Below, one piece after another: positions 6,181 to 16,834 of a stretch of DNA of 21,848 nt. Position numbers and translations under genes: made by a program. The stretch covers positions 1 to 21,848 of IMG/VR virus record IMGVR_UViG_3300001712_000002. The stretch is one strand, 5' to 3'. This stretch comes from a virus. The notes beneath the pieces are model-generated. The model was not told where the DNA came from, did no database searches, and was given only the letters and a program-made list of their open reading frames with translations. Position 1 is the stretch's first letter; each line of letters starts with the position of its first letter.

Positions 6181-6473
6181 GGGCACGCTCCTTCGGTTAG
6201 GACCGAGCGAGCGGGTGCCACCGCTGGACGGCCAGGGGCGGGGGCGAGGTTGGTCACCTCGCCTCCAGAGATCGGAAACATGCGCAGCGGGCGCGGCGCG
6301 GGGCGCCAGCGCGTGCAGCGCGCGGCGAGATCGAGGAAATCCACAGGCGGATGACCGGGCCGGTTACCCCACCAGGCGCGCGCCTCGGCTTCGCGCTCAG
6401 GCGTGAAATTCTGCACGCAATCGAGCGTGCCGCAGCGGGCGGTGCAGAAGCCCCGATCGCCAAAGCTGATCAT
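6177..6473 (-). CDS. Small Cys-containing hypothetical protein
   Basis: A 98-residue protein from ATG 6473, chosen because it gives an ATGA overlap with the upstream gene; the longer frame to 6749 would run through two neighbours. The N-terminus MISFGDRGFCTARCGTLDC holds three cysteines in C-x3-C-x4-C spacing, followed by an acidic helix with AWWG and then DFLDLAARC, a further cysteine. The C-terminal third is Pro/Ala-rich. The arrangement suggests a small metal-binding domain. The ParB-like gene starts inside its stop codon. Function is unknown. Confidence 0.7.
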   Translation of the reverse strand: MISFGDRGFCTARCGTLDCVQNFTPEREAEARAWWGNRPGHPPVDFLDLAARCTRWRPAPRPLRMFPISGGEVTNLAPAPGRPAVAPARSVLTEGACP

Positions 6474-6739
6474 GCGCACACCTCGCTGGTCGCGGCCGCG
6501 CGGGCAGCGCGCCAGTGTTCGAACGCGCCGCGATGTTCCGGGCAAAGATCCTTTCCCGGCGCCGGCTGATACGCGCAGCGGGCGCAGACCGGCGCATCGC
6601 ATGTTCCGCTCTTCCTGGTCGGGACCTTCCAGTCGCACAGCAGGGTGGCGGGGCGACCGCAGGCGCAGCGCTGGCGGGTGCGCGACGAGCAGATGATCGC
6701 CGACCCGCCGCCTGGGAGCGAGACGCGGTCGCACGTCAT
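6470..6739 (-). CDS. Small zinc-finger-like hypothetical protein
   Basis: An 89-residue protein with about eight cysteines: CACG (C-x-C), then LLCDW, then CDAPVCARCAYQPAPGKDLCPEHRGAFEHW. The C-x4-C-x2-C ... C-x2-H pattern looks like a B-box- or treble-clef-type zinc site and recalls small phage proteins of unknown role. It is coupled on both sides by 4-nt ATGA overlaps (6736-6739 and 6470-6473). Metal binding is inferred from Cys/His spacing; the ligand and function are unknown. Confidence 0.75.
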   Translation of the reverse strand: MTCDRVSLPGGGSAIICSSRTRQRCACGRPATLLCDWKVPTRKSGTCDAPVCARCAYQPAPGKDLCPEHRGAFEHWRAARAAATSEVCA

Positions 6740-7158
6740 GCGGCATCATTCGGGCGGTACCTGACTTCCATGGAAGCCGCTAAGACTGCGGTCCTGGCAG
6801 CTTGATATTCCAGGAGGAAGATTGACGTGCGACCGTAGCGCAACTGGATCATGCGCGGAGCGGACGTGCTCCCCATTGCCTGCCAGCGATCCCATTCGTC
6901 GGCGACTGCGGCGAAGGGCTTCAAAGCCATTACGAGCTGCGTCGACGCTAGATCGTGCGTGGCGGTAGTGCGCGCGTTGACCGCCTCAACGAGCAGTGCG
7001 GCGATCGCCGACGCGGATTCATCGCTCAGGTCACGATTGGCATCGACGACGAAGACTTCCATGTCGTCGGCGTCGAGTACCGATCCGGTTTCCTCGTCGC
7101 ACAGGCGCAAGGGCAAGCGGACGCCGAGTTCGGCCAGCAATTTCGCGAAAGGGGTCAT
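6736..7158 (-). CDS. Hypothetical protein (140 aa)
   Basis: A 140-residue protein joined to its neighbours by ATGA overlaps at both ends. It begins MTPFAKLLAELGVRL and contains an acidic segment with DADDMEVFVVDANRDLSDES followed by a long helix with ASAIAALLVEAVNAR. The C-terminal half has several aromatic and hydrophobic strands (IQLRYGRTSIFLLEYQAA). There are no transmembrane segments, signal peptide or recognisable catalytic motif. I do not recognise the family; it is a small soluble early phage protein by context. Confidence 0.7.
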   Translation of the reverse strand: MTPFAKLLAELGVRLPLRLCDEETGSVLDADDMEVFVVDANRDLSDESASAIAALLVEAVNARTTATHDLASTQLVMALKPFAAVADEWDRWQAMGSTSAPRMIQLRYGRTSIFLLEYQAARTAVLAASMEVRYRPNDAA

Positions 7159-7424
7159 GCCGACACCATCGCCGAGGCCATCAGCCGAAGGGTCGCGGTC
7201 TTGGTCCAGTTCTCGAGCAATCCCTTGTCGGGGCTGAAGGTGCAGGTGGACACGACGCCGGCGCAGGACAGCCGGCTACCGTCATAGCGCGTACGGTATG
7301 CGGCACCGTGGTTGGCGACGAGGCCGTCGATGATCGTTGCGGCGGGAACGCCCGCCCGAGTCAGCTTGCCGACATAGTCGGTCGCTGCGATCAGCTTTTG
7401 CCGTTTTAGATCGATCGCGTCCAT
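7155..7424 (-). CDS. Hypothetical protein (89 aa)
   Basis: An 89-residue protein whose ATG (7424) overlaps the preceding stop by 1 nt (TGATG) and whose stop overlaps the next ATG by 4 nt. It begins MDAIDLKRQKLIAATDYVGKL and includes GVPAATIIDGLVANHGAAYR, a helical stretch, followed by two cysteines in SCAGVVSTCTF. No family recognised. The order and coupling place it in the early operon. Confidence 0.65.
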   Translation of the reverse strand: MDAIDLKRQKLIAATDYVGKLTRAGVPAATIIDGLVANHGAAYRTRYDGSRLSCAGVVSTCTFSPDKGLLENWTKTATLRLMASAMVSA

Positions 7425-7747
7425 CAGTGCACCCGATCGAACGAAAAGGCGGGATGGGACCGATCGTGATGCGGATCTGTCAGTCGGACTTCCAGCACGT
7501 CCGAAATCCCGTGCACCTCTGTGTGCAAGAGCTCGCGCGCTTCGGACTCCGCCTGTTCAACCGACGATGCTAGGATCGCATAGGAACGCTGATCCTCACT
7601 GGTGACTTCAAAATCGATCGTGACGACGATCTCGCGCTCGCCACGATCATCGAACAATGCCCAATGGCGATCGTAATAGCGACGGCATGCCTGCAGCGAC
7701 GCCGGGTAGGGCATGGCGGCGATTTCCTGGAGCGTGGGCTTGGCCAT
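7424..7747 (-). CDS. Hypothetical protein (107 aa)
   Basis: A 107-residue soluble protein beginning MAKPTLQEIAAMPYPASLQA. The middle forms a strand-rich segment (REIVVTIDFEVTSEDQRSYAIL) followed by an acidic helix with EQAESEARELLHTEV and a last strand VLEVRLTD, so an alpha/beta fold with a small antiparallel sheet is likely. It starts 2 nt downstream of the gapR-like stop. Family and function are not recognised. Confidence 0.68.
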   Translation of the reverse strand: MAKPTLQEIAAMPYPASLQACRRYYDRHWALFDDRGEREIVVTIDFEVTSEDQRSYAILASSVEQAESEARELLHTEVHGISDVLEVRLTDPHHDRSHPAFSFDRVH

Positions 7748-7749
7748 CG

Positions 7750-7989
7750 CTACAGCCCCAACACGGATTTGTAGGTTTCGATCATCGCCTCGGCCTCGTC
7801 GCGATGGTGTTTCTCCATCTTGCGCAGGCGGATGATCACCCGCATCGTCTTGACGTCGAAGCCGGTCGATTTGGCCTCGCCGTAGACATCCTTGATGTCG
7901 TCAGCGATGCCCTTTTTCTCTTCCTCGAGGCGCTCGATCCGTTCGATGAGCAAGCGGAGCTGGTCCGCGGCAATGACGTCGGACATCAT
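7750..7989 (-). CDS. gapR: GapR-family (DUF2312) nucleoid-associated protein
   Basis: A 79-residue protein starting at ATG 7989, chosen because it gives an ATGA overlap with the upstream gene; a second ATG at 7986 is possible. Nearly the whole length matches DUF2312/GapR: an N-terminal coiled-coil helix ([20 protein letters not shown]) followed by [20 protein letters not shown] and IIRLRK. In Caulobacter, GapR is a multimeric protein that encircles overtwisted, AT-rich DNA ahead of replication and transcription and stimulates type II topoisomerases. A phage copy in an early operon beside a ParB-like gene could aid phage replication or alter host nucleoid organisation (inference). Length is normal for the family. 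Confidence 0.95.
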
Positions 7990-8168
7990 TCGACTCCTGT
8001 CAGCTGGGTGACGGTCACGGCGTATGTGTTCTTCGTCTGGCAATGTTCGATGGTCTGGGTGCCAGCTGCGGCATCGACCGAGATCACTCGATAGGTCGGC
8101 TCCGGATCGAAGCTGAGGAGGCCGCCGATCCAGCCGAGCAGTTCGTGGGCGTTGCCGGTCACACCCAT
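7986..8168 (-). CDS. Small hypothetical protein (60 aa)
   Basis: A 60-residue protein from ATG 8168. The longer frame to 8354 runs across the next gene and was not chosen. It ends TQLTGVE with a stop that overlaps the gapR-like ATG. The sequence has alternating strands ([20 protein letters not shown], then TYAVTVTQL), suggesting a small beta-rich domain. It has one cysteine. There are 11 nt to the upstream gene. Function is unknown. Confidence 0.62.
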
Positions 8169-8179
8169 GGTCGCCTCGC

Positions 8180-8407
8180 TCACAAGCCGAACAGCGCACG
8201 CAGCGCCGCTCCCAGATTGCCGGTGACGGCGACGGCCAGCAGCCCAGCCACCATGCCGAGCGCGAACAGGCCGGGGCCGCGGTGCAGCAAGCGGTGTAGC
8301 AGCGCGCGACGCGGATCGCTGGGGCTGGGTGGGCGGCAACTGGGGCATCCGCAATCCATGCGGTGCGTGATTTCCGGCCGGGGCCGGACGGCAAGGTCAA
8401 GTTTCAT
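8180..8407 (-). CDS. Small membrane protein with CxCxxC motif
   Basis: A 75-residue protein beginning [12 protein letters not shown]. Residues 19-24 contain C-G-C-P-S-C, then a basic RR/HR-rich segment, then one predicted transmembrane helix at about residues 47-65 ([20 protein letters not shown]). The start at 8407 overlaps the previous stop by 4 nt. The positive segment before the helix suggests the N-terminal part stays in the cytoplasm. Cysteines may bind metal. Function is unknown; it forms a pair with the preceding two-helix membrane protein. Confidence 0.65.
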
Positions 8408-8601
8408 CGTGACATCTCCCGCTGGATCATCGCGAAGGCGGTCGCGAGCGCGACCAAAGCGAGCCACAAGGCCGCCTTCGCCAAGGAAGGTTTGCTGAGC
8501 AGCAGCACGCTGACGCCGAAACCGGCGGCGGCGATCGCGAGATCGATCGCGCGGCGCGCCAGGCGCGCGCGCCGGGGGCGGCGGTGACCGTCGGCGCTCA
8601 T
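8404..8601 (-). CDS. Small two-helix membrane protein
   Basis: A 65-residue protein starting at ATG 8601, placed by its ATGA overlap with the upstream gene. The N-terminus is strongly basic (RRPRRARLARR). Two hydrophobic helices follow at about residues 18-36 and 43-59, so an inner-membrane hairpin is expected. It overlaps the next membrane protein gene by 4 nt. Size and topology would fit many small phage proteins, including exclusion proteins or holin-like factors; the early-operon location argues against a holin. No family recognised. Confidence 0.65.
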   Translation of the reverse strand: MSADGHRRPRRARLARRAIDLAIAAAGFGVSVLLLSKPSLAKAALWLALVALATAFAMIQREMSR

Positions 8602-8993
8602 TCGACGACGCTCGCCGCAGGCGGAGTGGCGCAGGCCGAGCACAGATCGGGCTCGACCCAGCAGCATTCGTCGCCCTTGGGATCCATGCACCGATCGTTT
8701 TTGCTGCAGGCGCAGATGCGACACAGGAAGGGCGCGAGTATGTCGGCACCCTGGGCGATCGCCTCGAGCTGGGCGAGCACGGTCAGATCGAAGCGATAGG
8801 CGAGGCGCAGGGCGACGACGGTGCGAAAGCTCGCGGGCGCGGCATCGGCTTCGATCAGCTCGAGCCATTTGCCACGCTGATGTTCGGACGTCTGCGGTTC
8901 GGTCGCGACGCGCGCGGCGACATCGGCGATGCTCAGACCGGCGCGCTGGCGACAGCGCTTGAGATATGCGCCGGGAGTGATCGTGCCGGTCAT
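8598..8993 (-). CDS. XRE-like HTH protein with Cys-rich C-terminus
   Basis: A 131-residue protein. Residues about 5-75 have the XRE pattern: YLKRCRQRAGLSIADVAARV followed by a degenerate turn and WLELIEADAAPASFRTVVAL. The C-terminal part has a cysteine cluster CRICACSKNDRCMDPKGDEC, then CWVEPDLCSACA, like small metal-binding modules seen in alphaproteobacterial prophages. It probably binds DNA, with the Cys module structural. It is coupled to both neighbours by ATGA overlaps. Confidence 0.78.
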   Translation of the reverse strand: MTGTITPGAYLKRCRQRAGLSIADVAARVATEPQTSEHQRGKWLELIEADAAPASFRTVVALRLAYRFDLTVLAQLEAIAQGADILAPFLCRICACSKNDRCMDPKGDECCWVEPDLCSACATPPAASVVE

Positions 8994-9262
8994 GACGACA
9001 GACCATCGGTCATGACGTTGGTCACTGCGGTGCCGGTGCGGTCTGTCGGGGCGGGCTCGACCAGGGTGATTTCGATCACCGGATCGACCGGATATTGCAA
9101 CGCGTGCGCCAGTTCGAGCTTGGCAAGCGAGATGTTGAGCCGCGCGCGCCGCACCCTGCCCATAGCGGTATAGGATGCGACCGACCGCTCGACCGGCCGC
9201 AGCGCCAACTGGATCGCGTCGAGCTCGGTCATGATCTTTACGATGGCGGCGCGGTTGCTCAT
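8990..9262 (-). CDS. Hypothetical protein, first gene of the coupled operon
   Basis: A 90-residue, mostly helical protein (AAIVKIMTELDAIQLALRPVER and RARLNISLAKLELAHALQYPV), no recognised family. It is the first of the uninterrupted coupled run; a 105-nt gap separates it from the CII-like gene. That gap, read on the minus strand, has TTGACC (9345-9340) but no good -10 element at the right distance, and a GC-rich inverted repeat near 9346-9362. A local promoter is therefore uncertain and read-through from the cro promoter is possible. No strong Shine-Dalgarno sequence precedes its ATG. Confidence 0.65.
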   Translation of the reverse strand: MSNRAAIVKIMTELDAIQLALRPVERSVASYTAMGRVRRARLNISLAKLELAHALQYPVDPVIEITLVEPAPTDRTGTAVTNVMTDGLSS

Positions 9263-9367
9263 GCGGATTGTCCAGGCAGCAGTTTTCCCACCCCGCCAGC
9301 GGATGCGGCGAGGGGGCTACGGTTCGGCGATGCAGGTTCGGTCAAGCCCGGGGGCGGGCCGGGCGGA

Positions 9368-9838
9368 TCATGGCGGTTGCTGCTCGTGCGCGATCAGCGA
9401 CTGGATCACCGCGACGGCGCGGTTTTTCGCCTGGATCGATTCGACGGTTTCCTTCAGCGCTTTCTTCAGAGCGCGATCGTCAGCACCGGGTAGGCCCGCC
9501 TCCATCAGCGCGACTTGGGATTCGCAGTCTTCGCGAGCAATTTCGATGGCGCACCGGCTGATCGCGTAGGCCTCACTGAGGCGTTCGGGCTTCGCCAGGT
9601 GCAGGATGGAAGCGACGATCTCAAAAATTGGTGCGCCGGGAAGGCCAGCACGCGCGTGAGCTCGCTCGAGCTTCACCATATCGACGACCGTCAATTGTTC
9701 GCGCCGGTTCGGATTGGACAGCGCGCGAAGGTAGGATGCTTTCCGTCCGGTAGCCTTGATCGCGCCGGGCATGCCCAGCGCGACGATCATCTTACCCAGG
9801 CCGTCTTCGACGGTGAGCGGATTCCGTACCATCGTCAT
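9368..9838 (-). CDS. CII-like phage regulatory protein
   Basis: A 156-residue protein from ATG 9838 (an ATG six nt downstream and an upstream in-frame extension are alternatives). Residues about 7-60 (VEDGLGKMIVALGMPGAIKA, then YLRALSNPNRREQLTVVDMV) have the layout of small CII/Cro-type HTH regulators in alphaproteobacterial phages, where a helix reading an index of the host locus precedes SNP-x-R and a following LT-x-x-x helix. The C-terminal half is helical (ALKKALKETVESIQAKNRAV) and may oligomerise. Position just beyond cro matches cII in lambda. HTH homology is suggestive rather than certain. Confidence 0.68.
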   Translation of the reverse strand: MTMVRNPLTVEDGLGKMIVALGMPGAIKATGRKASYLRALSNPNRREQLTVVDMVKLERAHARAGLPGAPIFEIVASILHLAKPERLSEAYAISRCAIEIAREDCESQVALMEAGLPGADDRALKKALKETVESIQAKNRAVAVIQSLIAHEQQPP

Positions 9839-10164
9839 ACGACCACCGCGCCTGCGCAAAACCGCGCGGCCGATTGCAGCAGCCATATCGGCCGAGCGCC
9901 TATAAAAAGAGGAGGTGGCACCGTCATGGGGGAGAGGGACCCGATGACGGTGCCGGTACGCGAACAGGACGGGTTGGGGGCACGTGCGCCAAGTCGAAAC
10001 ACCAGAACCCCAGGGCAAAGGTTCCGGGCGCACGCGATCCGGCCGACCCGTCGGCGGCCGAAACTGGAAAAGGGGGACGTCGACGGCAGGCGGGAGCGCA
10101 CCCGCCGCCGACGCTCGCCGCCCGAATGGCGGCAGAGGGAAAGGGATGGCACTGCCCGAGTCAC
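9835..10164 (-). CDS. Possible small ORF bridging cro and the CII-like gene
   Basis: A 109-codon frame begins at GTG 10164, overlapping the cro stop by 4 nt (GTGA), and ends at TGA 9835, overlapping the CII-like ATG by 4 nt (ATGA). The exact fit at both ends matches the coupling used in the rest of the operon. Against it, the translation is Arg/Ser/Pro-rich with scattered cysteines and no recognisable domain, and a strong hairpin lies inside it. It may be a real small gene, a translated leader, or a coincidence. Confidence 0.3.
   Translation of the reverse strand: MTRAVPSLSLCRHSGGERRRRVRSRLPSTSPFSSFGRRRVGRIACARNLCPGVLVFRLGARAPNPSCSRTGTVIGSLSPMTVPPPLFIGARPIWLLQSAARFCAGAVVV
9902..9954 (-). terminator. 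Strong hairpin downstream of cro, possible tR1-like terminator or attenuator
   Basis: A perfect 11-bp inverted repeat, GGCACCGTCAT (9917-9927) and ATGACGGTGCC (9944-9954), has a 16-nt loop. On the minus strand it is followed, after 8 nt, by TTTTT (9908-9904). In position it resembles lambda tR1, between cro and cII. The 8-nt gap between stem and U-run is longer than in a textbook intrinsic terminator, so protein-assisted termination, antitermination or a protein-binding site are alternatives. On the plus strand the same stem covers an ATG preceded by AAGAGGAGGT. Confidence 0.42.
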
Positions 10165-10415
10165 CGCGCGGGCTCCAGGCTGGCGCGGGTGGTAGCCGAG
10201 TCGTCGGGGTAGATGTCGGGACGAAGCACCTCTTTCGGGATGCCGGTTTCGCGCTCGACCAGGAGGACGTCCTCGGCGTGCACTGGCTTGAGATCGCGCA
10301 GACGCTCGTAGATCGACGACTGGGAACGGTTCACCAACCGGGCGTATGCCGTCTGCGTTCCGACGGCGCGGACCGCAGCTGCGAGCGGTGTGTCTATCGT
10401 CGATTCGATACCCAT
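10161..10415 (-). CDS. cro: Cro-like regulator, YdaS antitoxin family
   Basis: An 84-residue HTH protein. LAAAVRAVGTQTAYARLVNR, SQSSIYERL, then HAEDVLLVERETGIPKEVLRP and DIYP match the YdaS/Cro-like family, with the hallmark RPDIYP ending. These proteins are lytic-cycle regulators (CI antagonists) in lambdoid-like prophages. It is divergent from the cI-like gene, with the operator region between them. A plausible minus-strand promoter (TTGACC at 10450-10445) would place the transcript start within a few nt of the ATG, and no Shine-Dalgarno sequence is visible, so the mRNA may be leaderless. It is the first leftward gene. Confidence 0.9.
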   Translation of the reverse strand: MGIESTIDTPLAAAVRAVGTQTAYARLVNRSQSSIYERLRDLKPVHAEDVLLVERETGIPKEVLRPDIYPDDSATTRASLEPAR

Positions 10416-10423
10416 GGCGTTTG

Positions 10424-10450
10424 ACTATCGGTATTCCGATAGGTGGTCAA
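10424..10450 (-). promoter_or_regulatory. Putative cro promoter, overlapped by an operator
   Basis: On the minus strand TTGACC (10450-10445) resembles a -35 element. Candidate -10 elements are GATAGT (10429-10424, 15-bp spacing) or TAGTCA (10427-10422, 17-bp spacing), neither strong. The perfect operator palindrome covers the spacer and -10, so repressor binding would block RNA polymerase. Confidence 0.4.
10425..10442. promoter_or_regulatory. Operator O1 of the immunity region
   Basis: CTATCGG-TATT-CCGATAG is a perfect inverted repeat with 7-bp arms. It lies in the cro/cI divergent region and is repeated, with three changes, at 10473-10490. It is the expected form of an XRE-dimer operator. 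Confidence 0.75.
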
Positions 10451-10456
10451 TCGGAA
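10448..10456. promoter_or_regulatory. Degenerate operator half-site (possible O3)
   Basis: CAATCGGAA matches the half-site CTATCGGAA of the reverse-complemented O1 at eight of nine positions, but the other half is not conserved. Read as an 18-bp site, its centre falls 23 bp from O1 and 25 bp from O2, so spacing is regular. Confidence 0.35.
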
Positions 10457-10472
10457 AGTGCTTATGCTTGCG

Positions 10473-10490
10473 CTATTGGTTTTCCGTTAG
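10473..10490. promoter_or_regulatory. Operator O2 of the immunity region
   Basis: CTATTGG-TTTT-CCGTTAG differs from O1 at three of 18 positions. It ends 9 nt before the GTG start of the cI-like gene, where a bound repressor could regulate its own expression. Confidence 0.6.
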
Positions 10491-10499
10491 GTTCGAGCC

Positions 10500-11108
10500 G
10501 TGATTGTCGGGGCCAGAATCGAAGAGCGTTTGGTAGCTGTGCAGATGTCGCAGTCGGCGCTCGCGCGTCGTGTGAAGCTCGCGCAAAGCACCATCAACGG
10601 ACTCGTCAAAGGCGAGCAGCGCTCCACGACTAAGCTGCACGAGATTGCTCGAGCACTCAAAACGACGCCGGCCTATTTATCGGGCGAGATCGACGACCCG
10701 GAGTGCGATGCAGCTCAAGAACCCGCGCTCGACTTCGAAACGCGCGAGATACTGGATGATGTCGCGGACATGGACCCGGCAGACCGCCGCGCGATCGCGC
10801 AGATCGCGCGCAGCCTCACGCGGCGCGTGCCCACCGGGCGAGACGGCCCAGCGACCCTGCACGCGCGCGCCACCAGCTATCGCGGTCCGCCCGTCAGCGA
10901 GAACGCGCTGGGGCAAATGATCGAGGGGTTGCTGCGGGCTGTTGATCTGACGGCTCCCGTGCCCGAGCTCGCTCGTGAGCTTGCAGAGCTGTGGCCCACC
11001 GCGATCGCGCAAGTGCAAGGTCCGCTGCACGCGTCGGACGATGAGACGCCGGCGGCTCCAGCAGCATCGCCTGCAACTCTCGCCAGCGCCGGTCGCGCAC
11101 CGCGGTGA
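10500..11108 (+). CDS. cI: cI-like repressor, XRE family, without visible S24 domain
   Basis: A 202-residue protein from GTG 10500. Residues about 5-62 are an XRE helix-turn-helix: ARIEERLVAVQMSQSALARR, VKLAQSTINGLVKGEQRSTT and LHEIARALKTTPAYLSGE. Residues 75-110 are acidic and helical (TREILDDVADMDPADRRAIA). The C-terminal half contains another helical stretch with LGQMIEGLLRAVDLTAPVPE and a low-complexity Ala/Pro tail. I see no Ala-Gly cleavage site or Ser/Lys dyad region of LexA/CI peptidases, so RecA-stimulated self-cleavage is not supported. It is divergent from cro with a shared operator set. Repressor identity is inferred from the domain and context. No clear promoter or Shine-Dalgarno sequence was found. 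Confidence 0.88.
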   Translation: MIVGARIEERLVAVQMSQSALARRVKLAQSTINGLVKGEQRSTTKLHEIARALKTTPAYLSGEIDDPECDAAQEPALDFETREILDDVADMDPADRRAIAQIARSLTRRVPTGRDGPATLHARATSYRGPPVSENALGQMIEGLLRAVDLTAPVPELARELAELWPTAIAQVQGPLHASDDETPAAPAASPATLASAGRAPR

Positions 11109-11290
11109 TGACGGCGCACTGCACATCGCAGCGCGGACAGCGCAGTTCGCACGCGGGCGATGCCCGAAACACGGTTCCAGTCATTGGTCTTGCTCCCGGC
11201 CTGGCCGTCGAGGCTACTTCGACGGCTTTCAGGTCGAGCGACATGGTTGCCGGTAGAAGGTTAGGTCGGCGTTGACGAGCGCCACGCAAA

Positions 11291-11319
11291 TTGTCGGAAA
11301 TAATTCCTTGAATTAGAAG
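11291..11319 (+). promoter_or_regulatory. Putative promoter of the three-gene membrane operon
   Basis: TTGTCG (11291-11296) and TAGAAG (11314-11319) are separated by 17 bp within the most AT-rich part of this gap. A GGAA-ATAA-TTCC inverted repeat (11296-11307) overlaps the spacer and could be a regulator site. A start of transcription about 35 nt upstream of the WYL-like ATG is predicted. Confidence 0.35.
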
Positions 11320-11359
11320 CGCGAATAAGGGGGCAGGTGGTGATCCTTCAAAGCGATCG

Positions 11360-11821
11360 ATGAGGCTGGGAGATGCATCGGCTCCGGTTCTGAACCAACG
11401 CAAGGTCATCATCGATTATGTTGATGCGAACGGGGAGGCGAGCAGGCGTACAATCGTACCGTTCTTAATCGCTGGATCTTTCGCAGGCGGACGATTGGAC
11501 GTGCTCTATCTTGAGGCCCGTTGTCTCACCGCCAACGCGAAACGCACATTCCGCATCGATCGCATCCGGGAACTCAGTGACGCAGAAACCGGCGAGGTTT
11601 TGGATCTTCTGGAGTGGGCGCGTGGTCTCGAGGTCGGGCCGTTATCCCTGATCGATGAAGCTGAACCCGCAGAGGAGACCACTGCTGCCGCCCGTGTTCG
11701 ATCACCATCGCGCCTGTGGCTGATGGTAGCCATGCTATTGGCCGGGTATTTGATCGGCCGCTTTCGCATCCTGCACCTCCTTTTGGTCGCGACTCATATG
11801 CATTGGGGGCGATGGCTATGA
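11360..11821 (+). CDS. WYL-like domain protein with C-terminal membrane segment
   Basis: A 153-residue protein. Residues about 13-80 resemble a WYL-type ligand-sensing domain: QRKVIIDYVDANGEASRRTI for the first strands, a LYLEARCLTANAKRTFRIDR core matching the usual hydrophobic-aromatic ... RTFRLDRI pattern, then helix-forming AETGEVLDLLEW. Residues about 119-146 (LWLMVAMLLAGYLIGRFRIL) form one or two hydrophobic segments, so the domain is probably held at the inner membrane. WYL domains normally join an HTH in cytoplasmic regulators; here no HTH is present. ATG 11360 has no good Shine-Dalgarno sequence, and upstream in-frame ATG codons are absent. It is coupled to the next gene by ATGA. The specific function is unknown. 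Confidence 0.7.
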   Translation: MRLGDASAPVLNQRKVIIDYVDANGEASRRTIVPFLIAGSFAGGRLDVLYLEARCLTANAKRTFRIDRIRELSDAETGEVLDLLEWARGLEVGPLSLIDEAEPAEETTAAARVRSPSRLWLMVAMLLAGYLIGRFRILHLLLVATHMHWGRWL

Positions 11822-12282
11822 GGTTCACGATCGCGACGATCCTCTGCATGACGAGCCTCGTGCTGGCCTCACCCGCGCCGCTATGCGCTGCGCAGGTGGC
11901 AGACGACGGCTTAGAGGTGCTGGATGGAAAATGCTCTTATCCACCACGGTTGGGGAAGCCCGGCCCTGAAGATCGCCGCCTGGAATGCGATACTGTGGTC
12001 TTGTTGCCCTCCGGTCAGGACAGCGTATTGGTGCAATTCGCGAAAAAGGGCTCCGGCGCTCCGGTCGGCTTCGCAGGCCCGATCGGCGACAACGGAGAAA
12101 TGTCGGTGCGCCGCGTCTACCTCTCCCCCGGAAACCCTACGGCGGCAACAGCCGGTCATTGCCGCCTTTTCGAGCAAGATGGCAAGACGACGGGAATTTG
12201 GTGCGTTGCCTCGATTGGCCGTGTTCGAATTATCGCGAATTTTCGGGTCGCGCCGAAGATCACCCCGGAACTGACGCGATGA
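11818..12282 (+). CDS. Secreted four-cysteine hypothetical protein
   Basis: A 154-residue protein with a classic signal peptide (MRFTIATILCMTSLVLASPA, cleavage likely after Ala24 or nearby, context PLCA-AQ). The mature part has four cysteines at about positions 39, 57, 115 and 129, which could form two disulfides in the periplasm, and a beta-rich composition (DTVVLLPSGQDSVLVQFAKK; TGIWCVASIGRVRIIANFRV). ATG 11818 overlaps the WYL-like stop (ATGA); an in-frame ATG at 11812 has GGGGG well placed and is the alternative. It overlaps the next gene by 4 nt. No family recognised; its place between two membrane proteins suggests an envelope role. Confidence 0.72.
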   Translation: MRFTIATILCMTSLVLASPAPLCAAQVADDGLEVLDGKCSYPPRLGKPGPEDRRLECDTVVLLPSGQDSVLVQFAKKGSGAPVGFAGPIGDNGEMSVRRVYLSPGNPTAATAGHCRLFEQDGKTTGIWCVASIGRVRIIANFRVAPKITPELTR

Positions 12283-12839
12283 AAGCGTTTGGTTTCATCC
12301 TCGCCGCGATCGGCGCGTTGGTCGCAATCGGCTCGCTATTCCTATCGACATCGGTCCCGACAGAGGTTCCCGCAACCGAACTGTTCGGCGTTTCACACGC
12401 GTCTGAGGTTTATAATCTCGGGAAGCTCCAGACACAGTTGTTGGTGTTTATTGGGGGCTGCGCAATCGCGGTGATCGGCATAATCGTCGGATCGGCGGGC
12501 GTGATCATCGAGAAGGTGGCCCGGCCGGAGGCGATCCAGACGCTCGCGACGCCGGACGTCGTCACCGAAGCTCGCTCAGTCGAGAACTCTTTGGATTTGC
12601 CGCCTGCGCCTAACCCGCCCGGTGACCAAGGCAGTATCGACCCCGCTATCGGCGTTGGGCTCGGGGCGCTGGGCCTCATCATCTTCTTTACGATCGTCTA
12701 TGTGTTCGCCACGAATGGTGACCATTCCACCCGTGCGGCCATCATGCAAAATGCAGACGCGATCGCCGACAGGATCGACCACAACGCGGCGATACTCGAC
12801 GATTTGGAAACAAACGCGGCGGCAACTGCGCCAAATTGA
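12279..12839 (+). CDS. Three-helix inner-membrane hypothetical protein
   Basis: A 186-residue protein from ATG 12279 (ATGA overlap with the secreted protein). Helices are predicted at about residues 4-24, 53-77 and 123-144. The loop between the first two contains TSVPTEVPATELFGVSHASE and VYNLG, a pattern I associate with small membrane proteins of alphaproteobacteria that have no assigned function. The segment between helices two and three is acidic and proline-rich. The C-terminal tail (IMQNADAIADRIDHNAAILD) is an amphipathic helix that may form a coiled coil. With the previous two genes it forms a coupled set next to the immunity region. Confidence 0.72.
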   Translation: MKAFGFILAAIGALVAIGSLFLSTSVPTEVPATELFGVSHASEVYNLGKLQTQLLVFIGGCAIAVIGIIVGSAGVIIEKVARPEAIQTLATPDVVTEARSVENSLDLPPAPNPPGDQGSIDPAIGVGLGALGLIIFFTIVYVFATNGDHSTRAAIMQNADAIADRIDHNAAILDDLETNAAATAPN

Positions 12840-12908
12840 CGCCCGCTATGGTCCGCGTGATCAATTCCCGCTATGTTCCACCTCGGGAGCGCGGGCGTAA
12901 GCAAATCT

Positions 12909-13385
12909 ATGGTGGCGCAATATCGCCGATCGCCGAGCATGGTGAGCACGAAGCTGCAGGTGCTGGATTTCGCCAAGGCATATTTCCTACGCTGGGGCCG
13001 ATCGCCCAGCTATGGCGAGATCGGCAATGCGGTCGGCATCAACCGCTCTCGTGCGCGAGACATGGTGCGCACGCTGACCGCCGAAGGGGAGATCCTGCGC
13101 GAGTCGGGTGATCGGCGGCGGATGTCGTTTCCGGGGCTCGAGCAGCAAGTCAGCGAAGGCGATGCGATCCTCGCGCTGCGCGCCGCCGGGTGGACGGTGA
13201 ACCCCGATGGTCAGGTGTTCCAGCGGTCAACGGCCAGCACATTTCCGCCACTGCCGCGCGTGCCCGAACTTGAGCAGATACCCGTGACAGACGACGGGGG
13301 TCAGCGAAATGTCGGACAGCAATCCAGCCGAGGCGAAGGTGATGCGCGCGATCATCGCGCGCCACCGCAAACAGGCACTCGCTGA
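12909..13385 (+). CDS. LexA-N-terminal-like winged-helix DNA-binding protein
   Basis: A 158-residue protein if started at ATG 12909; ATG 12873 and ATG 12939 are in frame and none has a strong Shine-Dalgarno sequence. Residues about 14-70 match the LexA DNA-binding domain layout: KLQVLDFAKAYFLRWGRSPS, YGEIGNAVGINRSRARDMVR, and TLTAEGEILRESGDRRRMSF. The C-terminal half lacks a LexA peptidase region and instead carries a short helix-strand element (GDAILALRAAGWTVNPDG) and a polar tail. It overlaps the next gene by 77 nt in another frame, so the tail composition may be constrained. It is a likely transcription regulator of the middle or late genes. Confidence 0.75.
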   Translation: MVAQYRRSPSMVSTKLQVLDFAKAYFLRWGRSPSYGEIGNAVGINRSRARDMVRTLTAEGEILRESGDRRRMSFPGLEQQVSEGDAILALRAAGWTVNPDGQVFQRSTASTFPPLPRVPELEQIPVTDDGGQRNVGQQSSRGEGDARDHRAPPQTGTR

Positions 13386-14088
13386 ACGCGCTGCAGCTGC
13401 AGCGGCATCGCCAAAACCCGAGGTGAGGGGGGTGGGCTGGTCCACCAAGGCCCCGAAGAAGCGCAAGCCCAGCCAGCTCGAGAAAAGCATTGCCGACGAC
13501 ATCGCGCTCAACCGGCGCCGCTGGGCGGAGAAACATCCCGATCGTGCGGTAGCAGAGCGGGCATTGCGGAAATCCCGAGCGGAAATGCACGAGCGCTGGG
13601 ACCACAAGGCGCATGGCACCCCGGAAACCCACGAACACCATGCGCGTCGCCAAGACGGGGCGTTGGCGCGGCTGTACCTATCGGGATCGATCGATGCCGA
13701 GCAGCTCGCCTCGGCCGTCGAGATCGCCACGGTCGCCGAGCGGATGGGTGCCGATGTCACCGTCAAGACCTCCAGCGTCGAGACGCGCGTCGACCAAACC
13801 CGGAACGGCGATGGGATCTTTTACGAAGCGCTGGGCGCGGTGCGGCGCGAAATGGCCTATTCGCGCTGGCGACGCGAGGTGAGGGGGCCGATCGCCGCGG
13901 TGCTGGACATGATCGTCGGGGAGACGGTGGGCTACACGGTGGTCGCGCAGCGTTATGGGATGCACAACCGCCGCGCGAAGCAGCTGCTGATCGACGCGCT
14001 AGATCTGTGGCCGCGCATCTTTGGGGCGGTGTCCAAGGAAGTGGATGCTGCGACGCTGATCGCCGCGCATGCCGGCATTCTCGGCTGA
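13309..14088 (+). CDS. Hypothetical protein, possible late regulator
   Basis: A 259-residue protein from ATG 13309. The N-terminal third is basic and helical (VMRAIIARHRKQALAERAAA, then KKRKPSQLEKSIADDIALNR). The centre contains HHARRQDGALARLYLSGSID, AEQLASAVEIATVAERMGAD and SSVETRVDQ, a helix-rich segment I have a vague sense of from alphaproteobacterial prophages. The C-terminus has another helical region with a turn (VGYTVVAQRYGMHNRRAKQL, LIDALDLW) resembling an HTH. Its position, after a regulator and before a terminator ahead of the late genes, would suit a Q-like late activator, but that is inference from order only. A 77-nt overlap with the upstream gene suggests coupled translation. 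Confidence 0.68.
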   Translation: MSDSNPAEAKVMRAIIARHRKQALAERAAAAAASPKPEVRGVGWSTKAPKKRKPSQLEKSIADDIALNRRRWAEKHPDRAVAERALRKSRAEMHERWDHKAHGTPETHEHHARRQDGALARLYLSGSIDAEQLASAVEIATVAERMGADVTVKTSSVETRVDQTRNGDGIFYEALGAVRREMAYSRWRREVRGPIAAVLDMIVGETVGYTVVAQRYGMHNRRAKQLLIDALDLWPRIFGAVSKEVDAATLIAAHAGILG

Positions 14089-14173
14089 TCGTTATTTTTT
14101 GGGGGTACACAAAAACGCCCCTGCCAAAATGGCCACGTAACGGACTATTTCGACCCCGCGACAATTGCGCCTG
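14089..14173. other. Short non-coding stretch before the terminator
   Basis: After the stop codon comes T6-G5 (about 14096-14106) and an A-rich stretch, with GGGG/CCCC and GCCA/TGGC short inverted repeats. No promoter with both elements was recognised, though late transcription could start here. Confidence 0.3.
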
Positions 14174-14207
14174 AAGCCCACCGCCTTCCCCAGGCCGGTG
14201 GGCTTTT
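14174..14207 (+). terminator. Intrinsic terminator upstream of the late region
   Basis: A 10-bp perfect stem AAGCCCACCG (14174-14183) and CGGTGGGCTT (14196-14205) with a 12-nt loop runs into TTTT (14204-14207), then CC. It follows the 259-residue protein gene and precedes small late-region genes, so genes beyond it may need their own promoter or antitermination. Confidence 0.8.
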
Positions 14208-14228
14208 CCATATCTGGAGCGCTTCCCC

Positions 14229-14429
14229 ATGCCCCAGCCGCGCCTGTCCCGCTCTTCCCCTGGCGGGTCCATCGCAGATCAGCTCGAGCGGTTGACGCCC
14301 GATTGGGATCGGCTGGTGCATGACGCGCGGCTGGGGCGCCCGGGCCAGACGGCCTTCGAGGATCTCGAAGAGCGAGCACAGCAGCTTGCCCGCGCGATTG
14401 TCGCCCCCTTTCGTGGAGACCGCCGATGA
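14229..14429 (+). CDS. Small hypothetical protein (66 aa)
   Basis: A 66-residue protein from ATG 14229, about 20 nt after the terminator. The N-terminus is Ser/Pro-rich; residues 14-60 form an acidic-basic helical segment (ADQLERLTPDWDRLVHDARL; EDLEERAQQLARAIVAPF). Its stop overlaps the next ATG (ATGA at 14426-14429). No strong Shine-Dalgarno sequence and no family recognised. Confidence 0.6.
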   Translation: MPQPRLSRSSPGGSIADQLERLTPDWDRLVHDARLGRPGQTAFEDLEERAQQLARAIVAPFRGDRR

Positions 14430-14626
14430 CCACGCTCGCGATCCTGCGTGATTTCATCGCGACCATGCCCGGCGAGGAAGCGGTGATTTCGAAGGCGAGC
14501 CTGGTGGCGATCGAACGCGAGCTCACGACCGCGAGCGTCGCCGCAGCGCGAGTGAATATCGATGTCAGCGTGAACAGCGTCATCGATGGGCTGCTGACGC
14601 CTAACACAGCGCGCGGCTTCGCGTGA
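14426..14626 (+). CDS. Small hypothetical protein (66 aa)
   Basis: A 66-residue helical protein, MTTLAILRDFIATMPGEEAV, then ISKASLVAIERELTTASVAA and a final DVSVNSVIDGLLTP. It is coupled to the previous gene by ATGA and to the next ORF by GTGA. No family recognised; it resembles small helical phage proteins found ahead of DUF3164 genes only in general character. Confidence 0.62.
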   Translation: MTTLAILRDFIATMPGEEAVISKASLVAIERELTTASVAAARVNIDVSVNSVIDGLLTPNTARGFA

Positions 14627-14778
14627 ATCGCCAGCTGGCATCTCTCCTGGTCGGGAGCCGAACCCGGCAGGAAGTCTCGCCGACCGCGACTGTGCAAGGC
14701 ACACTGCCTGCGGGCACCGCCGGGGCATCGCCATCGGTTCGCGGCCGTGCAGCCACGGTTTTCCGCCAGATATCTTGA
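14623..14778 (+). CDS. Possible small ORF (51 aa), GTG start
   Basis: A 51-codon frame from GTG 14623 overlapping the previous TGA (GTGA) and ending at TGA 14776-14778. The peptide is Thr/Ala/Gly-rich with a basic C-terminal segment (NRQLASLLVGSRTRQEVSPT). The exact start-stop overlap matches the operon's habit, and the stop in turn overlaps an in-frame TTG (14775) of the following long open frame. There is no domain evidence, so this is tentative. Confidence 0.38.
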   Translation: MNRQLASLLVGSRTRQEVSPTATVQGTLPAGTAGASPSVRGRAATVFRQIS

Positions 14779-15011
14779 CCGGGGCGGAGGGGGTCTCCGC
14801 CTTCGCCACGACGATTTCAAGGCAGGTGCCGATCACGCGGAGGGTTGAGGCGACCGAGGTGCAGTGCGCACCGCTCGAGGTCAAGTCTCGCCGCACGATA
14901 GGCACACGGGTCGCGACTAGCCCAGGCCGGGCGGGTTCGGCTCGAGCAACAAGCCCGGCACTTATTCACTGCAGGGTTTCCGGGTGTGCTGGGCTGGCCT
15001 ATACCTCTGGG
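14779..15011. other. Uncertain coding stretch in frame with the DUF3164 gene
   Basis: The frame that carries DUF3164 stays open back to TTG 14775, but between about 14900 and 15011 the translation turns Ser/Arg/Thr-rich and third-position GC falls, which is poor evidence for coding. No other gene, repeat or clear promoter is seen here. Confidence 0.35.
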
Positions 15012-15968
15012 ATGCCCTTTCCTGAGAGCAGAGCATTTCGTGAGGGCGAGGCCGCAGTCATAGGCGACGGTTTGAGCTGTGTGATCGCCGCAGCGGAATT
15101 GCGCCGCGCTGGCATTGTCACCCTCACCGACAGTCAGGGCTCGTTGAGAAAGCAGCTTCGTCGAGCAGCGGCCTTCGAAGTGGTCGTTTTCGCGGGGGCT
15201 CTTGACCGACTAGCCGTTCGGGACATGCTCAGCGGCAATCAGCGCAATGCCGAGCACCTAAACGATCTTCCGCAGCTTGTGGCCGATGCGCTGCTGGATG
15301 GTTTTTACGAGCAGGATGGAGCTGGATCGATGGTCGAAGCTGCCCACCCTGCGATGATCGACGTTGCTGGCACACCTTACATCCGCGACGCAAAAGGCAG
15401 TCTTGTGCCGCTAGCTTCGGTGAAGGCCGCAGATCTGCTGATGGACGAGACGGTGCGCGGGATCCTTGACCAGGCGCGAGCGCTGTCGGCGACGATCGCC
15501 GCGTTCAAGAGCGAAACGTTCGAGCGCGTCGGTGCGCTGCAGGCTCTGATCGCGCAAAATTACGGCGGCACCGTTGGCGGCAAAAAGGGCAACATCACGC
15601 TGATGTCGTTCGACGGCTGCATGAAGGTACAGGTTCAGGTCGCAGATCTGCTCGAATTCGGCCCGGAATTGCAGGCGGCAAAAGGCCTGATCGACGCCTG
15701 TCTCACGGATTGGGCGGTCGGCAGCGCGGTCGAACTGCAGGCACTCGTCAACCGAGTGTTCCAGGTCGATAAGGAAGGCAAGATCAACCGCGCCGAGCTA
15801 TTCATGCTGTTGCGCGTCGAGATTGCGGATGAGCGCTGGGTGCGCGCGATGGACGCGATCCGTGATTCCATCCGCGTGATCGGCTCGCGCACGTATGTTC
15901 GTTTCTATCAGCGACCGGCGCCGGATGCGGCGTGGTCGGCCGTCACGATCGATCTCGCCGCCGCGTGA
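15012..15968 (+). CDS. DUF3164 family protein with N-terminal extension
   Basis: The C-terminal ~200 residues are a clear DUF3164 protein: YIRDAKGSLVPLASVKAADL, then helices, GGTVGGKKGNITLMSFDGCM, KVQVQVADLLEFGPELQAAK, then a helix up to ADERWVRAMDAIRDSI and ending SRTYVRFYQR. DUF3164 is a phage family of unknown role, common in the early region of Mu-like phages. The usual length is about 200 residues, and ATG 15330 with GGAG 8 nt upstream is the best-supported start for that core. However, the same frame is open upstream, and from ATG 15012 it encodes a protein-like extension (AAAFEVVVFAGALDRLAVRD). I give the longer form; the true start may be 15330 or even TTG 14775. Confidence 0.72.
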   Translation: MPFPESRAFREGEAAVIGDGLSCVIAAAELRRAGIVTLTDSQGSLRKQLRRAAAFEVVVFAGALDRLAVRDMLSGNQRNAEHLNDLPQLVADALLDGFYEQDGAGSMVEAAHPAMIDVAGTPYIRDAKGSLVPLASVKAADLLMDETVRGILDQARALSATIAAFKSETFERVGALQALIAQNYGGTVGGKKGNITLMSFDGCMKVQVQVADLLEFGPELQAAKGLIDACLTDWAVGSAVELQALVNRVFQVDKEGKINRAELFMLLRVEIADERWVRAMDAIRDSIRVIGSRTYVRFYQRPAPDAAWSAVTIDLAAA

Positions 15969-16615
15969 CTTCGATCGACATCCGCGCCAACCTGAAGCCG
16001 CTCCAGCGTGCGTTCATCGGGCTCAGCGCGAAACAGGTGCCGTTCGCGACGTCGCTCGCGCTGAACGCCCTCGCAAAGGGCGTCGTCGCGCAAGAAAAGG
16101 ACGAGGTGTCGGACACCTTCGACACCCCAACGCCGTTCACGCAGAATGCGTTTCGAATCGAGGTCGCCACGAAATCGCGCCCGATCGCGCGGGTCGCGGC
16201 GAAGGACATCCAGGCCGAATATCTCGAGCCTTATGTTGTAGGCGGCAATCGATCGCTCGGAACGAAGCGTGGGATGCTAGCGCCGCGCGAGATCACGCTG
16301 AACCAATATGGCAATCTGGCCAAAGGGAAGCTGGCCTCGCTCAAGGGAAAGCCCGGCGTTTTCATCGGTAAGGTGACGACGCGGAATGGCAAGGTCGTCA
16401 ACGGTGTCTGGCAGCGGCCGACATCCGCAGCACGGCGCGTCGGCAACAAAGGCGGCAAAGCCCGAACCGGATTGAAACTGCTGATCCAGTTCGAAGACAC
16501 GACGCCAGTCCGCAAGCGCTTCGACTTCTTCGGCCGGGCAACGGCCTACCTGAAGGCCAATGCCGCGCGCGAGTTCGACGCTGCGCTAAAGCGCGCCTTC
16601 GCAACCACGAGGTGA
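15965..16615 (+). CDS. Phage virion/morphogenesis-like protein (tail protein Z-like, tentative)
   Basis: A 216-residue basic protein from GTG 15965 (GTGA overlap with the DUF3164 stop). The N-terminus is SIDIRANLKPLQRAFIGLSA; a middle part has FDTPTPFTQNAFRIEVATKS, KDIQAEYLEPYVVGGNRSLG and ITLNQYGNLAKGKLASLKGK. The P-T-P-F-T-x-N, K-D-x-x-x-x-Y-L-x-P and GG-x-R sequence pattern is one I associate with phage tail or assembly proteins related to minor tail protein Z, but the match is from memory and not secure. The location before the terminase genes would be unusual for a tail gene. It overlaps no later gene and is followed by a 3-nt gap. Confidence 0.6.
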   Translation: MTSIDIRANLKPLQRAFIGLSAKQVPFATSLALNALAKGVVAQEKDEVSDTFDTPTPFTQNAFRIEVATKSRPIARVAAKDIQAEYLEPYVVGGNRSLGTKRGMLAPREITLNQYGNLAKGKLASLKGKPGVFIGKVTTRNGKVVNGVWQRPTSAARRVGNKGGKARTGLKLLIQFEDTTPVRKRFDFFGRATAYLKANAAREFDAALKRAFATTR

Positions 16616-16618
16616 CAT

Positions 16619-16834
16619 ATGATCGTGTGCGGCATAGACATCGCGACCGATCGCTTCGAAGTTGAGGTGATCGGCTGGAGTTCGTTGGGCCCACTCCGAA
16701 TTTCGGGATGGACCTCGATCTTGGTCGATCCGACGACCGGTCTCTGGGAAGCGCGCCGTCTCAGCCGTCGCGCCGCCCGCCGTCAGCGTGGCCGGGCGCG
16801 CGCCGCCCGCCGCGCAGCCGCCGCCTGTCCCTGA
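16619..16834 (+). CDS. Small hypothetical protein with Arg-rich tail
   Basis: A 71-residue protein from ATG 16619, with GAGGTGA about 4 nt upstream, a good Shine-Dalgarno sequence. The N-terminus MIVCGIDIATDRFEVEVIGW forms a strand-turn-strand like the first strands of RNase H-like enzymes (for example RuvC-like or IS110-type transposases), but the rest of such a fold is absent. The last ~25 residues are Arg/Ala-rich (ARRQRGRARAARRAA), likely nucleic-acid or membrane interacting, or a shifted frame. The stop is immediately followed by a terminator hairpin. Function is unknown. Confidence 0.5.
   Translation: MIVCGIDIATDRFEVEVIGWSSLGPLRISGWTSILVDPTTGLWEARRLSRRAARRQRGRARAARRAAAACP

What the first reader, a model, noticed from the sequence alone, without database searches (positions are those of the whole stretch)
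11291..12839. Membrane-anchored WYL-like, secreted and three-helix proteins form a coupled set beside the immunity region
Three genes (11360-11821, 11818-12282, 12279-12839) are joined by ATGA overlaps, start after a possible promoter, and lie directly behind the cI-like repressor. Seen: a WYL-like fold without an HTH but with a C-terminal membrane segment, a signal-peptide protein with four cysteines, and a three-helix protein with a cytoplasmic-type amphipathic tail. Established: WYL domains sense ligands (often nucleic acids) in regulators, and genes flanking repressors are often expressed in lysogens. Inference: an envelope sensing or superinfection-exclusion system not matching any I know.
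Basis: partly seen in the sequence, partly recalled or inferred. Interest (0 to 1): 0.72.

Follow-up and report, generated by a model that had tools for sequence, protein, structure and literature searches.

The report
Phage membrane-anchored WYL sensor gene cassette
Next to its repressor, a Sphingomonas prophage carries a nucleic-acid-sensing (WYL) protein with a membrane tail, translationally coupled to a secreted protein; related repressor-WYL pairs, often followed by envelope or secreted-nuclease genes, recur in many temperate phages and resemble in layout lambda's rex exclusion genes.

Summary
The three genes and both ATGA overlaps are real. Gene 1 is a true WYL domain (Pfam 3e-10; predicted fold matches PafBC, BrxR, CapW and DriD) with ssDNA-binding arginines intact, no HTH and a conserved C-terminal membrane segment. 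Gene 2 is a secreted four-cysteine protein of a family also found in Sphingomonadaceae chromosomes. Gene 3 has three hydrophobic helices; its tail is probably periplasmic, not cytoplasmic.

It is not a conserved three-gene set. A sibling phage keeps genes 1-2 under purifying selection (dN/dS about 0.25-0.28) but has lost gene 3 to a HicBA cassette. Gene 1 recurs next to another prophage's repressor without genes 2-3, and as a reversed insert in a Mu-like tail operon, ATGA-coupled to a different secreted protein.

The wider pattern is stronger. HTH-less WYL proteins (mostly WYL-TerB) lie directly downstream of a cI-like repressor in 19 of 22 viral clusters, often followed by secreted or membrane genes, including a secreted nuclease coupled by ATGA. 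HTH-bearing WYL regulators show 0 of 18.

Best reading: a lysogen-expressed, membrane-tethered nucleic-acid sensor with an envelope partner, Rex-like in layout but unrelated (0.4). Rival: a sensor acting on the repressor (0.3). No function was shown; lysogen expression is untested.

The parts
10161..10415 (-). Cro-like repressor gene, divergent from the cI-like gene
   Evidence: PHROG 35 transcriptional repressor 3e-9
10425..10442 (.). operator-like palindrome CTATCGGTATTCCGATAG
   Evidence: exact match to the pattern drawn from this region
10473..10490 (.). second operator-like site CTATTGGTTTTCCGTTAG; a weaker one lies at 10394-10411
   Evidence: none found upstream of gene 1
10500..11108 (+). 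cI-like repressor: HTH_3/HTH_26, no S24 peptidase match
10894..11184 (-). 96-aa ORF antisense to the 3' end of the repressor, Cys-rich N-terminus, homologous ORFs in L004 and L029
   Evidence: no Pfam match
11185..11359 (.). 175-bp intergenic stretch before gene 1; no clear promoter
11360..11821 (+). gene 1: WYL domain (residues about 10-72) plus C-terminal membrane segment (WYL-TM)
   Evidence: Pfam WYL 3.2e-10, AF2/Foldseek, dN/dS 0.28
11543..11563 (+). RTFRIDR ligand-binding motif (R62, F64, R65, R68)
   Evidence: aligned with PafC R201/R204 and the Pif1 WYL domain; spacing equals CapW R183/F185/R189
11711..11818 (+). C-terminal membrane segment and conserved GY(L/V)(I/V)GR(F/L)R...WGxWL tail
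   Evidence: invariant G129, Y130, G133, R134, R136, G150, W152, L153 in four proteins; predicted helix 118-149
11818..12282 (+). gene 2: secreted beta-rich protein with four conserved cysteines, ATGA-coupled to gene 1
   Evidence: homologues in 16 other Sphingomonadaceae genomes; AF2 mean pLDDT 83; dN/dS 0.25
12279..12839 (+). gene 3: three-TM protein with probably periplasmic tail, ATGA-coupled to gene 2, lost in the sibling phage
12315..12861 (.). variable segment: in L004 replaced by a lipoprotein-like ORF plus a HicBA toxin-antitoxin pair
   Evidence: homology break and resumption; HicB/HicA Pfam hits
12723..12836 (+). gene 3 tail with motif NADAIADRIDHNAAILDD, shared with lipoproteins L011 and L004
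12873..13385 (+). DNA-binding gene after the cassette, conserved in L004 and L031
   Evidence: phrog_3502 and a weak LexA-type HTH match

Best explanation
Genes 1 and 2 form a lysogen-side accessory unit, and gene 3 is optional cargo. Gene 1 keeps a WYL nucleic-acid-binding domain in the cytoplasm and fixes it to the inner membrane by its C-terminal helix. It most likely senses single-stranded nucleic acid made by a superinfecting phage (or by damage) at the membrane, and works with the periplasmic partner made by coupled translation (gene 2), and here a membrane protein (gene 3), to block or abort the second infection. The plan is Rex-like: a nucleic-acid sensor encoded behind cI plus an envelope effector. 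Shown here: WYL fold (predicted), ligand arginines, membrane segment, secreted partner, translational coupling twice with different partners, purifying selection, moron-type insertion, and recurrent linkage of WYL proteins to cI-like repressors. Inferred: expression in the lysogen, ssDNA as ligand, protein-protein contact, and exclusion of phage.
For: WYL fold. R65/R68 align with PafC R201/R204, the pair whose mutation together with its PafB counterpart abolishes ssDNA binding, and with ssDNA-contacting arginines modelled in a Pif1 WYL domain. WYL-TM plus ATGA plus a different secreted protein lies reversed inside a Mu-like tail operon of another prophage, between tape measure and baseplate hub, with GC3 0.63-0.65 against mostly 0.8 or more around it; that is classical moron placement. 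Gene 1 has the lowest GC3 (0.61) of the window genes tabulated. dN/dS is 0.28 and 0.25. Related cI-WYL pairs are followed by envelope genes, among them a secreted SNase coupled by ATGA. rexAB of lambda and of a P. putida prophage occupy the same place and pair a DNA-binding sensor with a membrane effector.
Against: No recognisable effector (nuclease, channel, toxin) in the window's own genes 2-3. Gene 2's relatives are ordinary chromosomal genes, so it could be a captured housekeeping envelope protein. In L031, WYL-TM occurs without any secreted partner. Full WYL-TM is rare (four loci found). No expression or phage-challenge data. The membrane segment is interrupted by two arginines, so its topology is uncertain.
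Confidence: 0.4

Rival explanations
1. Lysogeny-control sensor. The WYL protein is a partner of the cI-like repressor: it senses ssDNA or nucleotides made on DNA damage and weakens or strengthens repression, in effect supplying from a second gene the sensing domain that the repressor lacks. The membrane anchor would sequester the complex.
For: HTH-less WYL proteins lie directly downstream of cI-like repressors on the same strand in 19 of 22 viral WYL-TerB clusters, 12 of them within 50 nt, and in seven prophage loci with gaps of -43 to +32 nt. In the window, L029/L031, L033, L066, L080 and L081 the repressor has no S24 peptidase match. PafBC and DriD use ssDNA in WYL to signal damage.
Against: Three cI-WYL loci (L034, L063, L096) have repressors with a normal S24 peptidase. 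One WYL-TM copy sits far from any repressor in a tail operon. In the window an antisense ORF and 251 nt separate the two genes.
Confidence: 0.3
2. Lysogenic conversion without phage sensing: gene 1 regulates or accompanies envelope proteins borrowed from the host (genes 2-3), changing envelope properties of the lysogen, for example in stress or competition.
For: Gene 2 and gene 3 both have homologues as ordinary genes in Sphingomonadaceae chromosomes; gene 3 is exchangeable.
Against: Does not explain the WYL domain with intact ligand arginines, nor its recurrent linkage to repressors.
Confidence: 0.2
3. Incidental cargo: three unrelated genes brought together by mosaic exchange at a variable site, with no common function.
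For: Gene 3 is swapped for HicBA in the sibling; genes 2-3 are absent in L031.
Against: Genes 1 and 2 are both under purifying selection in the sibling, and the ATGA coupling of WYL-TM to a secreted protein is found twice with different partners.
Confidence: 0.1

Closest known systems
WYL-domain sensors (PafBC, DriD, CapW, BrxR; Pif1 and Cas13d WYL1)
   Same: WYL fold with the arginines that bind ssDNA in PafBC and Pif1 or are proposed to bind a ligand in CapW
   Different: no HTH, no WCX, no helicase; instead a C-terminal membrane segment with a conserved WGxWL end
RexAB of phage lambda and RexABpp of a P. putida prophage (PMC12894663)
   Same: encoded behind the cI-like repressor; nucleic-acid-binding sensor plus membrane component
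   Different: no match to a known RexA/RexB family was seen; sensor and membrane anchor are on one chain, and the partner is secreted
SieA and other membrane superinfection-exclusion proteins (PMC10883804); SNIPE membrane-bound nuclease (PMC13190303)
   Same: inner-membrane location, action at phage DNA entry; SNIPE also ties a DNA-binding domain to the membrane
   Different: no sequence relation shown; gene 1 has no nuclease; SieA has no WYL domain (own knowledge)
WYL-TerB and WYL-BRCT proteins (Makarova et al. 2014, PMC4012209)
   Same: WYL fused to a non-HTH partner; WYL-TerB relatives also sit behind phage repressors here
   Different: gene 1 carries a membrane helix instead of TerB; no repressor linkage was found in the passages of that paper that I read

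Membership tests
WYL-domain superfamily (PF13280) | sequence match above the curated threshold | tested here: met
   40.3 bits against 21.8
WYL-domain superfamily (PF13280) | Sm-like beta-barrel fold | tested here: met
   AF2 core and Foldseek: PafBC 8e-4, BrxR, CapW, DriD
WYL-domain superfamily (PF13280) | positively charged ligand groove (RxFRxxR) | tested here: met
   R62/F64/R65/R68 present; R62, F64, R68 invariant in six relatives
WYL transcription factors (CapW/BrxR/PafBC/DriD type) | N-terminal wHTH | tested here: not met
   WYL begins at residue 10; no HTH match at E up to 1
WYL transcription factors (CapW/BrxR/PafBC/DriD type) | C-terminal WCX domain | tested here: not met
   after the WYL barrel only a short helix, a disordered linker and the membrane helix
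RexAB | located downstream of a cI-type repressor | tested here: met
   rep 10500-11108, gene 1 from 11360, same strand
RexAB | homology to RexA or RexB | tested here: inconclusive
   no such Pfam or NCBIfam match for genes 1-3, but the libraries were not checked for Rex models and no direct comparison with Rex proteins was run
RexAB | phage exclusion phenotype | not testable with these tools
   needs phage challenge
Superinfection exclusion proteins | expressed from the prophage in the lysogen | not testable with these tools
   no RNA-seq; promoter scan negative
Known anti-phage systems (PADLOC 2.0) | match to a complete known system | tested here: not met
   only partial WYL-domain matches (RTasWYL-YodC, CRISPR-associated WYL)

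The most novel reading that the evidence does not exclude
Temperate phages widely carry a lysogeny module of cI-like repressor, HTH-less WYL sensor and exchangeable envelope or secreted-nuclease effector; in this phage the sensor is fixed in the membrane. It would be a rex-like exclusion/switch system that evolved independently around the WYL domain.
Probability: 0.35. Interest if true: 0.85.

Novelty: new variant of a known kind. Interest (0 to 1): 0.6.

Why it matters
WYL domains are established as nucleic-acid sensors in damage response and as regulators of host anti-phage systems. Finding them, without a DNA-binding domain, next to the repressors of many temperate phages would mean that prophages use the same sensor to decide about induction or to repel rivals. 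The window gives the simplest testable version: a 153-aa membrane-anchored sensor with one secreted partner. The papers I could search did not describe a repressor-WYL operon or a membrane-tailed WYL protein.

Tried and rejected
Conserved three-gene system: rejected, gene 3 is absent or replaced in the sibling and in other WYL-TM loci. Promoter-driven separate operon: no supporting consensus, no operator copy before gene 1. Known defence system: PADLOC gave only WYL-domain matches; NCBIfam gave no match for genes 1-3. Gene 2 as lysozyme inhibitor or other named secreted family: no sequence match; Foldseek only weak calycin/lipocalin-like hits with E > 0.03 and TM <= 0.44, so no fold name is claimed. 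Gene 3 as DUF4064: 13.6 bits against a cut-off of 32.1, rejected. Plasmid and phage collections gave no relatives of gene 3. WYL hits in Autographiviridae (Stm18, BUCT609) are 69-aa proteins beside a primase gene and not part of this pattern. Many weak WYL hits in Sphingomonas genomes were HTH-bearing YafY-type regulators and served as controls.

Full report
What is there. The window is a virus record; 11.7 kb of it (5041-16781) is 99.95% identical to a contig of Sphingomonas sp. Ant H11, so this is a Sphingomonas prophage. It has a Cro-like gene (10161-10415, minus), operator-like palindromes, a cI-like repressor (10500-11108, plus), the three genes of the finding, a DNA-binding gene (12873-13385) and, further on, terminase and lambda-family portal genes. 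The three ORFs and both ATGA overlaps are as described.

Gene 1. Pfam WYL at 3.2e-10, above the curated threshold. AF2 on four natural sequences gives a beta-barrel with pLDDT mostly 82-91, then a disordered linker and a long C-terminal helix. Foldseek's best PDB matches are PafBC (8e-4), BrxR, CapW and DriD. By sequence profile the best PDB match is the WYL domain of a bacterial Pif1 helicase (5e-7), then PafC. R65 and R68 fall on PafC R201 and R204 in that alignment; mutating that arginine pair in both PafBC subunits abolishes ssDNA binding (PMC11804915). They also fall on R498/R501 of Pif1, modelled as ssDNA contacts (PMC9964779). The spacing R62-x-F64-xxx-R68 equals CapW R183/F185/R189 (PMC9122588). 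There is no HTH. The C-terminus carries an invariant G-Y-x-x-G-R-x-R pattern and ends in WGxWL or a close variant in four proteins. Because two arginines interrupt the hydrophobic stretch, it may be a short transmembrane helix or a membrane-bound hairpin; I do not claim a topology.

Gene 2. A signal peptide followed by a beta-rich domain with four cysteines that are nearly invariant in homologues from Sphingomonadaceae (16 other genomes of 398 searched). These homologues were not found next to a WYL gene within the short loci fetched. The model is confident (mature part mostly above 85) but has no convincing PDB match.

Gene 3. Three hydrophobic helices. Relatives of its N-terminal part occur in four other Sphingomonadaceae genomes of 299. 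Its tail motif is shared with a putative lipoprotein of the host genome and with the lipoprotein-like ORF that replaces gene 3 in a sibling phage.

Is it a set? The sibling phage IMGVR_UViG_2924999570_000004 (L004) is 92.6% identical over window 10770-12314, then diverges and resumes at 12862. Genes 1 and 2 are kept at 92% and 94%, with dN/dS of 0.28 and 0.25. Gene 3 has lost its start codon and all but its first 40 bases or so; a lipoprotein-like ORF and a HicB-HicA pair occupy the site. In another genome (G328) WYL-TM occurs twice. On contig C24 it follows the repressor and is followed at once by the DNA-binding gene, without genes 2-3. On contig C3 it lies reversed between tape measure and baseplate hub genes of a Mu-like tail operon, with its stop codon overlapping the start of a different secreted protein (W-L-stop/ATG, as in the window), at GC3 0.63-0.65 against mostly 0.8 or more around it. 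Thus 'WYL-TM coupled to a secreted protein' recurs with different partners, gene 3 does not, and WYL-TM itself is rare: searches of about 400 family, 400 order and 250 genus genomes and of the viral collection returned only these four loci.

The wider pattern. WYL proteins without an HTH, most with a C-terminal TerB-like part, sit directly downstream of cI-like repressors in seven further prophage loci, with gaps of -43 to +32 nt (L033, L034, L076, L077, L080, L081, L096; domains). Of 38 WYL loci that I sorted by hand from those searches, 9 of 20 HTH-less and 0 of 18 HTH-bearing had such a repressor (one-sided Fisher p = 0.001). In a second set of 29 IMG/VR contigs found with the WYL-TerB alignment (22 clusters at 80% identity), 19 clusters have a same-strand repressor within about 470 nt upstream, 12 of them within 50 nt. 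Caution: the search alignment was built from repressor-linked members, so the viral set is biased towards them, although its members are only 31-41% identical to the query. Genes just downstream are often envelope-directed: secreted SNase with ATGA overlap (L101/L108; Pfam 6.8e-9), another SNase-like ORF (L104), zinc-ribbon TM proteins (L077, L112, L114, L117), other TM or secreted ORFs (L100, L103, L106, L109, L132). Signal peptides and TM segments here rest on hydropathy only.

How it may work. The position (behind cI, or as a reversed moron), low GC3 and selection point to a function in the lysogen. The WYL domain points to single-stranded nucleic acid or nucleotides as the signal. The membrane tail and the coupled secreted partner point to an output at the envelope. 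RexAB has the same plan: a DNA-binding sensor and a membrane effector behind cI, and RexA of lambda also modulates the lysogenic/lytic switch (PMC12894663). I therefore favour Rex-like exclusion (0.4) over a pure repressor-control role (0.3). The recurrent repressor linkage would also fit the second, and the two are not exclusive. Three linked repressors keep an S24 peptidase, so WYL does not simply replace SOS cleavage.

Limits. No expression, binding, localisation or phage data exist here. Structure prediction of complexes was not available. The literature check covered open-access papers only and found no repressor-WYL operon and no membrane-tailed WYL protein.

Noticed in passing
window 10894-11184 (-); L004 5538-5828 (-); L029 1885-2190 (+): A 96-aa Cys-rich ORF antisense to the 3' end of the repressor is conserved in sequence and place in diverged phages; in the window its GC2 (0.67) exceeds GC3 (0.62), so coding status is uncertain.
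   Followed up: partly
window 10500-10770 vs L004 5090-5417: The repressor's HTH half differs between the sibling phages while the DNA from 10770 to 12314 is 92.6% identical: an exchange of immunity specificity inside the repressor gene.
   Followed up: partly
L004 6955-8088: HicB-HicA toxin-antitoxin genes sit in the site where the window phage has gene 3; a variable cargo site between repressor cassette and DNA-binding gene.
   Followed up: partly
L101 7718-8044 (-), L108; L104 downstream of the WYL gene: A secreted staphylococcal-nuclease homologue is translationally coupled (ATGA) to a repressor-linked WYL gene; a second SNase-like ORF lies downstream in L104. A secreted nuclease behind cI-WYL would suit destruction of incoming DNA.
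   Followed up: partly
window 7753-8400 (-): Phage-encoded GapR-like DNA-binding domain (PF10073, 1.8e-32); similar short ORFs recur in the other sphingomonad prophages read here.
   Followed up: no
L011 1399-1773 (-), window 12723-12836: The motif NAD.IAD.ID.NAA.LDD is shared between a host lipoprotein and phage membrane proteins; its role is unknown.
   Followed up: partly
L002 5755-6270, L003 5734-6243: Acetobacteraceae phages phiAP1 and phiKM1 also carry HTH-less WYL proteins beside XRE repressors, in phiAP1 with an N-terminal hydrophobic segment instead of a C-terminal one; phiKM1 has N in place of the arginine equivalent to R65.
   Followed up: partly
window gene 1 residues 17-73: PADLOC's RTasWYL-YodC model (annotated DRT, defence reverse transcriptases) matches at 1.4e-8 through its WYL part.
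   Followed up: no
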